Source: an uncultured Alcanivoracaceae bacterium
GTDB lineage: Bacteria; Pseudomonadota; Gammaproteobacteria; Pseudomonadales; Alcanivoracaceae
Length of the DNA stretch: 15,679 nucleotides
Direction of reading: 5' to 3'
Assembly: GCA_937943665.1 (NCBI GenBank)
Contig: CALEAR010000163.1
Span: forward strand, 1 to 15,679
Under the pieces are notes generated by a model. That model saw only the letters and a program-made list of their open reading frames with translations, was not told where the DNA came from and did no database searches. Position 1 is the first letter of the stretch. The number at the start of each line of letters is the position of its first letter. Positions 1-820 of this stretch are shown here, piece by piece. The position numbers and the translations under genes were made by a program.

Positions 1-820
1 TTTGCTCTGCGATTTGCTCGAGCACCTTGGCGCCAGATACTTGGTAAGGCAATGCCGTTACCACTATATCCTGCTCCTCACGATGCCACACAGCGCGCAT
101 GCGCAGGGCGCCGCGGCCCTCCTGATACAAGGTGGCAATTTCCTCTGCAGGGGTAATGATTTCTGCCTCAGTGGGGAAATCCGGCGCCGGCATAATCTCC
201 AAAACCTCCTCAAGGGTGGCCTTGGGGTGCTTAAGCAAATGAATACAGGCTTGAGCCACTTCCCGTAGGTTATGGGGGGGGATATCGGTGCTCATTCCCA
301 CCGCAATACCTGTGGTACCGTTTAACAACACATTGGGTAGGCGCGCCGGCAACAACTTTGGCTCTTCTAGACTGCCATCAAAGTTAGGGATCCACTCCAC
401 CGTGCCTTGGCCTAGCTCAGCGAGCAATACCTCCGCATAGGGGGCGAGCTTGCTTTCTGTGTAACGCATGGCGGCGAAGGATTTGGGATCATCTGCAGAC
501 CCCCAGTTCCCTTGACCATCCACCAACGGATAGCGATAGCTGAAGGGCTGCGCCATGAGCACCATGGCTTCATAGCACGCTAAATCCCCGTGGGGATGAT
601 ACTTACCAAGCACATCCCCCACGGTGCGTGCGGATTTTTTGTATTTCGCCGTGTTTTTTAACCCGAGTTCGCTCATGGCGTACACAATACGGCGCTGCAC
701 GGGCTTTAGCCCATCGCCAATGTAAGGCAAGGCGCGATCTAAAATCACGTACATGGAGTAATCAAGGTACGCCTTCTCGGTGTAATCGCGTAGCGCGACT
801 TGTTCAAAATCCTGTGCCAT
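1..820 (-). CDS. parC: DNA topoisomerase IV subunit A (ParC), N-terminal part, cut by window edge
   Basis: ParC is the DNA-cleaving subunit of topoisomerase IV, which decatenates daughter chromosomes together with ParE. The first 273 codons are present and run off the left edge without a stop. The start MAQDFEQVALRDYTEKAYL is typical of gammaproteobacterial ParC. Visible motifs include LKPVQRR near residue 40, the quinolone region VGDVLGKYHPHGD ending at residue 79, and GTTGIAVGMSTDIPPHN near 210. The catalytic tyrosine lies in the AMRYTESK segment. Residue 80 is Leu (codon TTA, 583-581) where the family usually has Ser; Glu84 is retained. The Leu is a known fluoroquinolone-resistance exchange. 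The gene starts 12 bases after parE stops, with only a weak ribosome site, so coupling to parE is likely. Identity is certain; the resistance phenotype is inferred. Confidence 0.97.
   Translation of the reverse strand, partial: MAQDFEQVALRDYTEKAYLDYSMYVILDRALPYIGDGLKPVQRRIVYAMSELGLKNTAKYKKSARTVGDVLGKYHPHGDLACYEAMVLMAQPFSYRYPLVDGQGNWGSADDPKSFAAMRYTESKLAPYAEVLLAELGQGTVEWIPNFDGSLEEPKLLPARLPNVLLNGTTGIAVGMSTDIPPHNLREVAQACIHLLKHPKATLEEVLEIMPAPDFPTEAEIITPAEEIATLYQEGRGALRMRAVWHREEQDIVVTALPYQVSGAKVLEQIAEQ

What the first reader, a model, noticed from the sequence alone, without database searches (positions are those of the whole stretch)
581..583. ParC Leu80: topoisomerase IV fluoroquinolone-resistance substitution
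Codon 80 is TTA (Leu) in the context HPHGD-L-ACYEAM. The equivalent is Ser80 in E. coli and Ser87 in P. aeruginosa, and Ser-to-Leu there is a well-known resistance change reachable by a single step from TCA. Glu84 and ParE Ser458/Glu460 are unchanged. In organisms where GyrA is the primary target, a ParC change usually follows a GyrA change, so exposure to quinolones may have shaped this strain. A natural Leu in this lineage is the alternative.
Basis: partly seen in the sequence, partly recalled or inferred. Interest (0 to 1): 0.72.

Follow-up and report, generated by a model that had tools for sequence, protein, structure and literature searches.

The report
Drug-target change in uncultured Alcanivorax relative
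An essential DNA-untangling enzyme of this environmental bacterium carries, at a position that hardly varies among its relatives, a change of the kind that makes disease germs resistant to ciprofloxacin-type drugs, and its nearest relatives carry similar changes in both enzymes that those drugs hit.

Summary
Confirmed: ParC codon 80 (window 583..581, minus strand) is TTA, Leu; Glu84 and ParE Ser458/Glu460 are unchanged. Leu is not the family norm. In the 80 ParC relatives kept from a capped scan the residue is Ser in 76, Leu in none; in 47 ParC copies of 46 family genomes it is Ser in 44, Ala in 2, Phe in 1. The Phe is in G033, the closest genome found (93% ParC identity), which also has GyrA Leu83, the only non-Ser GyrA83 of 46. 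Among 754 genomes drawn from its order and class only G033 has Leu/Phe at this motif twice. Database proteins place the window in a small clade without organism names: ParC80 is Phe, Ser, Leu, Leu (plus a doubtful Ser fragment); GyrA83/87 is Leu/Asp, Phe/Ala, Ser/Asp, Phe/Asp, Phe/Asn, Phe/Asn. The likeliest reading is repeated selection for quinolone-type target resistance. The window is a 15.7-kb contig without a held genome, so its own gyrA, habitat and MIC are unknown; an older natural cause is not excluded. The substitution is a known kind; the host lineage and the recurrence in both targets are the new part.

The parts
581..583 (-). parC codon 80, TTA = Leu (Ser in most relatives)
   Evidence: Sequence and translation; conservation
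569..571 (-). parC codon 84, GAA = Glu, the second quinolone-contact position, unchanged
2..820 (-). parC, topoisomerase IV subunit A, first 273 codons (cut by the contig end)
   Evidence: NCBIfam parC_Gneg TIGR01062 5.4e-149; full-length twin P0003
833..2719 (-). parE, topoisomerase IV subunit B, 628 aa; Ser458 and Glu460 wild type
   Evidence: NCBIfam parE_Gneg TIGR01055 2e-299, 994.4 bits, above its cut-off
2726..3313 (-). yqiA-like esterase; the order parC-parE-yqiA is the same in the closest genome G033 (ORFs of L135 named by eye)
   Evidence: PRK11071, 7.7e-60, 201.9 bits, below its cut-off of 252

Best explanation
The window is a chromosome piece of a probably uncultured Alcanivoracaceae bacterium whose topoisomerase IV has the target-site change ParC Ser80Leu. 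In known enzymes this serine, with the acidic residue four positions on, holds the water-magnesium bridge to quinolone drugs; a bulky hydrophobic residue there breaks the contact, so the drug no longer traps the cut DNA well, while the enzyme still works. In this clade resistance-type residues have arisen several times in ParC (80) and GyrA (83, 87), most likely because its members live where quinolone-type poisons select for them. Shown: the residue, its rarity outside the clade, the varied substitutions within it, and the GyrA+ParC pair in sister genome G033. Inferred: resistance itself, the window organism's GyrA state (a guess from kinship: Phe83 or Leu83), and the selecting agent.
For: Leu80 confirmed and recorded on 11 contigs. 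Ser in 76 of 80 relatives kept and in 44 of 47 ParC copies of 46 family genomes; GyrA83 Ser in 45 of 46 and Leu only in G033, with Asp87 in 46 of 46. G033: ParC Phe80 (TTC) + GyrA Leu83 (TTA). Leu/Phe at the GK[YF]HPHGDxA motif: 4 of 390 order genomes (GyrA in G033, G096, G163; ParC in G033, G333) and 3 of 369 class genomes (G033 again; ParC in G557, G565; enzyme told by eye); only G033 has two. In a sample of 115 order genomes 113 carry the motif with any residue. Clade GyrA83/87: L/D, F/A, S/D, F/D, F/N, F/N; the other 115 listed proteins: 72 S/D, 38 T/D, 3 I/D, 1 L/D, 1 S/E. Clade monophyly SH-aLRT 100 in both trees, built with the two codons masked (quick method). Of columns at least 95% conserved in the family, 22 of 208 (ParC) and 23 of 217 (GyrA) vary in the clade; at that rate 3 of the 4 bridge positions changing has P about 0.004, and ParC80 is the only radical change before residue 198 of ParC. 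Bridge mechanism: passages of PMC9917921.
Against: No MIC or enzyme assay. The window's own gyrA is not available. The clade also varies at other conserved sites (45 of 425 conserved columns in all, the three bridge positions included), so some relaxation is possible. Wild-type members exist (P0002 ParC Ser80; P0122 GyrA Ser83/Asp87). P0003 and P0005 share Leu80 although only 84% identical over the full ParC, and pair in the tree (SH-aLRT 97), which allows one old origin. Single odd residues occur elsewhere: of 115 listed ParC proteins outside the clade 105 are Ser, 3 Ala, 2 Tyr, 2 Met, 1 Ile, 1 Leu, 1 Phe. In G033 no pentapeptide (Qnr-type) protein and only one pterin-binding (FolP/Sul-type) protein were found, so no acquired resistance gene speaks for drug exposure; only these two families were searched, and G033 is incomplete (no rpoB or rpsL found). 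The window's exact ParE is listed on one contig only, and the next ParE is 93% identical, so the ParE partner of the other P0003 contigs does not appear in that list; I cannot explain this.
Confidence: 0.6

Rival explanations
1. Natural, pre-drug cause: the clade tolerates, or was long selected for, hydrophobic residues here by natural topoisomerase poisons or competitors' toxins, and synthetic quinolones had no part.
For: Leu80 is shared by P0003 and P0005 (84% identical), and Phe83 by P0123, P0124 and P0126; this is compatible with old, inherited states. No acquired resistance gene in the sister MAG for the two families searched.
Against: The states differ between close relatives (P0001 Phe and P0002 Ser at 95.7% identity; GyrA L, F and S within one group of three), which looks like repeated and fairly recent change. 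Leu83 and Asn87 are the usual resistance changes of E. coli gyrase (PMC9917921); that Phe83, ParC Leu80 and ParC Phe80 are also known clinical changes is recalled.
Confidence: 0.28
2. Relaxed constraint or drift: the clade evolves fast and position 80 changed without selection or effect.
For: 22 of 208 and 23 of 217 family-conserved columns vary in the clade; the window's chpA-like gene has two in-frame stops, as in a decaying gene.
Against: In ParC, position 80 is the only radical change among conserved columns before residue 198; both GyrA bridge positions changed too, the chance of 3 of 4 at the background rate being about 0.004.
Confidence: 0.1
3. Sequencing or assembly error in the codon.
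For: The window is a whole contig of 15,679 bases, and its chpA-like gene holds two unexpected stop codons.
Against: An identical ParC N-terminus, Leu80 included, is recorded on 11 contigs.
Confidence: 0.02

Closest known systems
Quinolone target-site resistance in Gram-negative bacteria (GyrA Ser83/Asp87 and ParC Ser80 changes)
   Same: Same residue positions and same kind of replacement, in both targets, within the clade
   Different: Environmental Alcanivoracaceae without organism names; no phenotype; GyrA and ParC changes seen together in one genome only in the sister G033
QRDR mutations in environmental Escherichia communities (PMC4673309; abstract read)
   Same: GyrA S83L/D87N and a ParC S80 change found by amplicon sequencing of sediment DNA, with no significant relation to quinolone pollution except at the most polluted site
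   Different: That study looked at one gut-derived genus; here the changes recur across several species-level proteins of a non-enteric lineage
Unclassified Alcanivoracaceae OTU/MAG of a swine-manure lagoon (PMC9692488; passages, outline and sections 5 and 20 seen)
   Same: An Alcanivoracaceae bacterium not classified to genus (best GenBank 16S hit Alcanivorax limicola JB21, 94.2%), 16.1% of 16S reads, in a sample with 726 detected resistance genes
   Different: No link to the window or to G033 could be tested; gyrA does not occur in that paper's main text

Membership tests
ParC, Gram-negative topoisomerase IV subunit A | Match to the parC profile and adjacency to parE | tested here: met
   TIGR01062 parC_Gneg E 5.4e-149, 497.5 bits, under its whole-protein cut-off of 628.9 because 273 of about 748 codons are present; the broader PRK05561 scores 499.5 and GyrA TIGR01063 369.3 bits; parE lies next to it
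Quinolone target-site resistance substitution | Replacement of the bridge serine (ParC80/GyrA83) by a bulky hydrophobic residue | tested here: met
   TTA = Leu at codon 80
Quinolone target-site resistance substitution | Departure from the wild-type residue of close relatives | tested here: met
   Ser in 44 of 47 family ParC copies and in the clade member P0002
Quinolone target-site resistance substitution | Accompanying GyrA change in the same genome | tested here: inconclusive
   Own genome not held; present in the closest genome G033 and in 5 of 6 clade GyrA proteins, G033 included
Quinolone target-site resistance substitution | Raised quinolone MIC or reduced drug-induced DNA cleavage | not testable with these tools
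   Needs culture or purified enzyme
Alcanivoracaceae | The clade groups with named members of the family | tested here: inconclusive
   Named hits nearest in the protein lists are Alcanivorax, Isoalcanivorax and Alloalcanivorax; G033 was drawn in the family of the A. jadensis genome G002, and NCBI places A. jadensis in Alcanivoracaceae.

The most novel reading that the evidence does not exclude
A whole uncultured Alcanivoracaceae genus carries quinolone-resistance-type residues in both topoisomerases, gained many times and partly long before synthetic quinolones, because natural topoisomerase poisons act in its habitat: a natural model of target-based quinolone resistance outside the clinic.
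Probability: 0.18. Interest if true: 0.68.

Novelty: new member of a known kind. Interest (0 to 1): 0.42.

Why it matters
If right, an environmental, non-enteric lineage shows the clinical pattern of stepwise target resistance in both enzymes, repeatedly and in several species. Such a lineage could serve as a chromosomal sensor of quinolone pressure in waste or manure systems, where counting acquired genes would miss target mutations. If the states prove old, it would instead point to natural selection by unknown topoisomerase poisons.

Tried and rejected
Family-wide natural Leu80: rejected, Ser in 44 of 47 family ParC copies. Base error: largely rejected by the identical protein on 11 contigs. 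An additional ParE change: window ParE Met445/Gly457 (E. coli numbering, recalled) is common among relatives: 15 of 59 rows of loci plus window (some genomes appear twice in these rows) and 80 of 96 database proteins that matched my motif; 24 of the 120 did not match the motif and were not counted, among them P0244, P0245 and P0246, which on a looser motif also have Ser458/Glu460. Qnr-type pentapeptide protein in G033: none. Second FolP/Sul-type protein in G033: one match only. rpoB and rpsL in G033 as further resistance markers: not found, MAG incomplete. Viral-contig scan with ParE: 9 stretches matched a pattern, none a relative. Linking GyrA and ParC proteins of the clade by contig: not possible; on the 3.12-Mb contig of G004 the two genes lie about 830 kb apart. 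Literature: the titles listed by the searches show no paper on QRDR changes in Alcanivoracaceae (lists cut at 15 of 18, 12 of 343 and 8 of 31); (metagenome-assembled genomes, gyrA, QRDR, S83L, uncultured) found 0 papers. The library holds open-licence papers only. P0004 (ParC fragment with Ser80, 99% identical to G033 over 92% of the 273-residue query, no contig data) looks by eye like an assembly chimera in its second half; it is kept in the tree and counts, but I do not lean on it.

Full report
What is there. The window is a whole contig of 15,679 bases: its ParE is listed in the protein database on one contig of exactly that length, and no genome is held for it. parC lies at 820..2 on the minus strand and runs off the end after 273 codons; parE lies upstream at 2719..833. 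Codon 80 of parC, at 583..581, reads TTA, Leu; codon 84 is Glu; ParE 458 and 460 are Ser and Glu.

Is it unusual? Yes. The three nearest are titled Alcanivorax (83-84% identity). In the family of A. jadensis (G002; Alcanivoracaceae) 46 genomes were searched and 47 ParC copies read (G003, a MAG, has two; G016 is split): 44 Ser, 2 Ala (both G003), 1 Phe. All 46 have GyrA Asp87; 45 have GyrA Ser83. One antisense chance match in the GyrA script (L162) is left out of this count.

The closest genome. G033 (2.1 Mb, incomplete: no rpoB or rpsL found) matches the window's ParC at 93% and has the same gene order parC-parE-yqiA, named by eye. It is the one genome with ParC Phe80 (TTC) and the one with GyrA Leu83 (TTA). 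Leu or Phe at this motif is rare: 4 of 390 genomes drawn from its order and 3 of 369 drawn from its class, five genomes being in both draws, so 754 distinct; only G033 has it twice. The others have it once: GyrA in G096 and G163, ParC in G333, G557 and G565. In a 115-genome draw from the order the motif with any residue was found in 113; in the matches listed (the list was cut) the residue, read by eye, is Ser or Thr except one Ala, one Gly and G033's two. The pattern misses Ile, Met, Tyr and other replacements, so these rates are lower bounds for change at the site.

The clade. A database search with G033's ParC returned P0003, identical to the window's ParC over its 273 residues and recorded on 11 contigs, so Leu80 is hardly a base error. 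The window's exact ParE, in contrast, is listed on one contig, the next being 93% identical; I cannot explain why the ParE of the other P0003 contigs is not in that list. The nearest ParC proteins are P0001 (G033, Phe), P0002 (Ser), P0003 (window, Leu), P0004 (Ser; fragment, probably a chimera) and P0005 (Leu). Of the 120 listed, 107 are Ser, 3 Leu, 3 Ala, 2 Phe, 2 Tyr, 2 Met, 1 Ile; of the 115 outside the clade 105 are Ser. With G033's GyrA as query the nearest are P0121 (Phe83/Ala87), P0122 (Ser/Asp), P0123 (Phe/Asp), P0124 and P0126 (Phe/Asn), with G033 itself Leu/Asp. Both lists show the best 120 of about 8000 scored. None of these clade proteins carries an organism name, hence 'uncultured', which is an inference. 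Trees built with both codons masked put the 5 ParC and the 6 GyrA proteins each in one clade (SH-aLRT 100; quick method, no bootstrap); they used 36 ParC and 29 GyrA rows. The fewest changes over the whole trees are 8 in ParC80, 6 in GyrA83 and 2 in GyrA87; within the clade, by my reading, two, three and two.

Is it more than fast evolution? Columns at least 95% conserved in the family vary in the clade in 22 of 208 (ParC N-terminal part) and 23 of 217 (GyrA). Three of the four bridge positions vary (ParC84 does not); at the background rate that has P about 0.004. Since ParC80 was given by the finding, the fairer figure is the pair GyrA83 and GyrA87, about 0.011. Radical changes (BLOSUM62 below 0) touch 7 ParC and 8 GyrA columns; in ParC, position 80 is the only one before residue 198. 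Against: other conserved sites do move, so relaxed constraint may add something.

How it would work. Passages of PMC9917921 state that GyrA Ser83 and Asp87 anchor the water-magnesium bridge to the quinolone, that the commonest resistance changes sit at the equivalent positions in both enzymes, that S83L and D87N/Y are the usual ones in E. coli gyrase, and that bulky Leu may also clash sterically. ParC80/84 are the equivalents (recalled, and from the alignment). So Leu80 should weaken quinolone trapping of topoisomerase IV. That a ParC change alone matters little while gyrase is sensitive is recalled knowledge for species where gyrase is the main target; it makes a GyrA change in the window's genome likely but unproven. 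By kinship the window's GyrA may be of the P0123/P0124/P0126 type (Phe83); this is a guess from distances.

Who selects? Unknown. PMC9692488 (passages, outline, two short sections) reports an unclassified Alcanivoracaceae making up 16.1% of 16S reads in a swine-manure lagoon; PMC8113772 (passages) names the family as a likely host of resistance genes in sludge-treated soil, by correlation. Neither can be tied to the window. PMC4673309 (abstract) shows that such mutations are common in environmental Escherichia even without quinolone pressure, so residues alone do not prove local exposure. Against a purely recent cause: Leu80 is shared by P0003 and P0005, 84% identical. For a recurrent and partly recent cause: Phe and Ser differ between P0001 and P0002, 95.7% identical.

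Verdict. The substitution itself is well known; the host lineage and the recurrence are the new part.

Noticed in passing
window 9247-15453, minus strand: A ChpA-like chemosensory kinase gene (Hpt domains, HATPase, CheW, receiver) is interrupted by two in-frame stop codons, TAG at 14601..14599 and TGA at 9885..9883. Relatives G002 and G042 have one open frame of 2376 and 2414 codons; in G033 two pieces, covering only part of the gene, are open with no stop inside. Nonsense mutations, assembly errors and recoding were not told apart.
   Followed up: partly
L127 and L131 (G003): One Alcanivorax MAG has two different ParC copies, both with Ala80; either two strains in one bin or a true duplication.
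   Followed up: no
L182 (G333), L183 (G096), L184 (G163), L187 (G565), L188 (G557): A single Leu at the bridge serine in ParC (G333, G557, G565) or GyrA (G096, G163) of other genomes of the order and class.
   Followed up: partly
P0004 (database protein): ParC fragment 99% like G033 in its first part but with Ser80 and a divergent second half: a probable assembly chimera, or a hint of Ser/Phe polymorphism near G033.
   Followed up: no
window 833-2719, minus strand (P0241): The exact ParE of the window is listed on one contig only, while the ParC N-terminus is on 11 contigs; unexplained.
   Followed up: no
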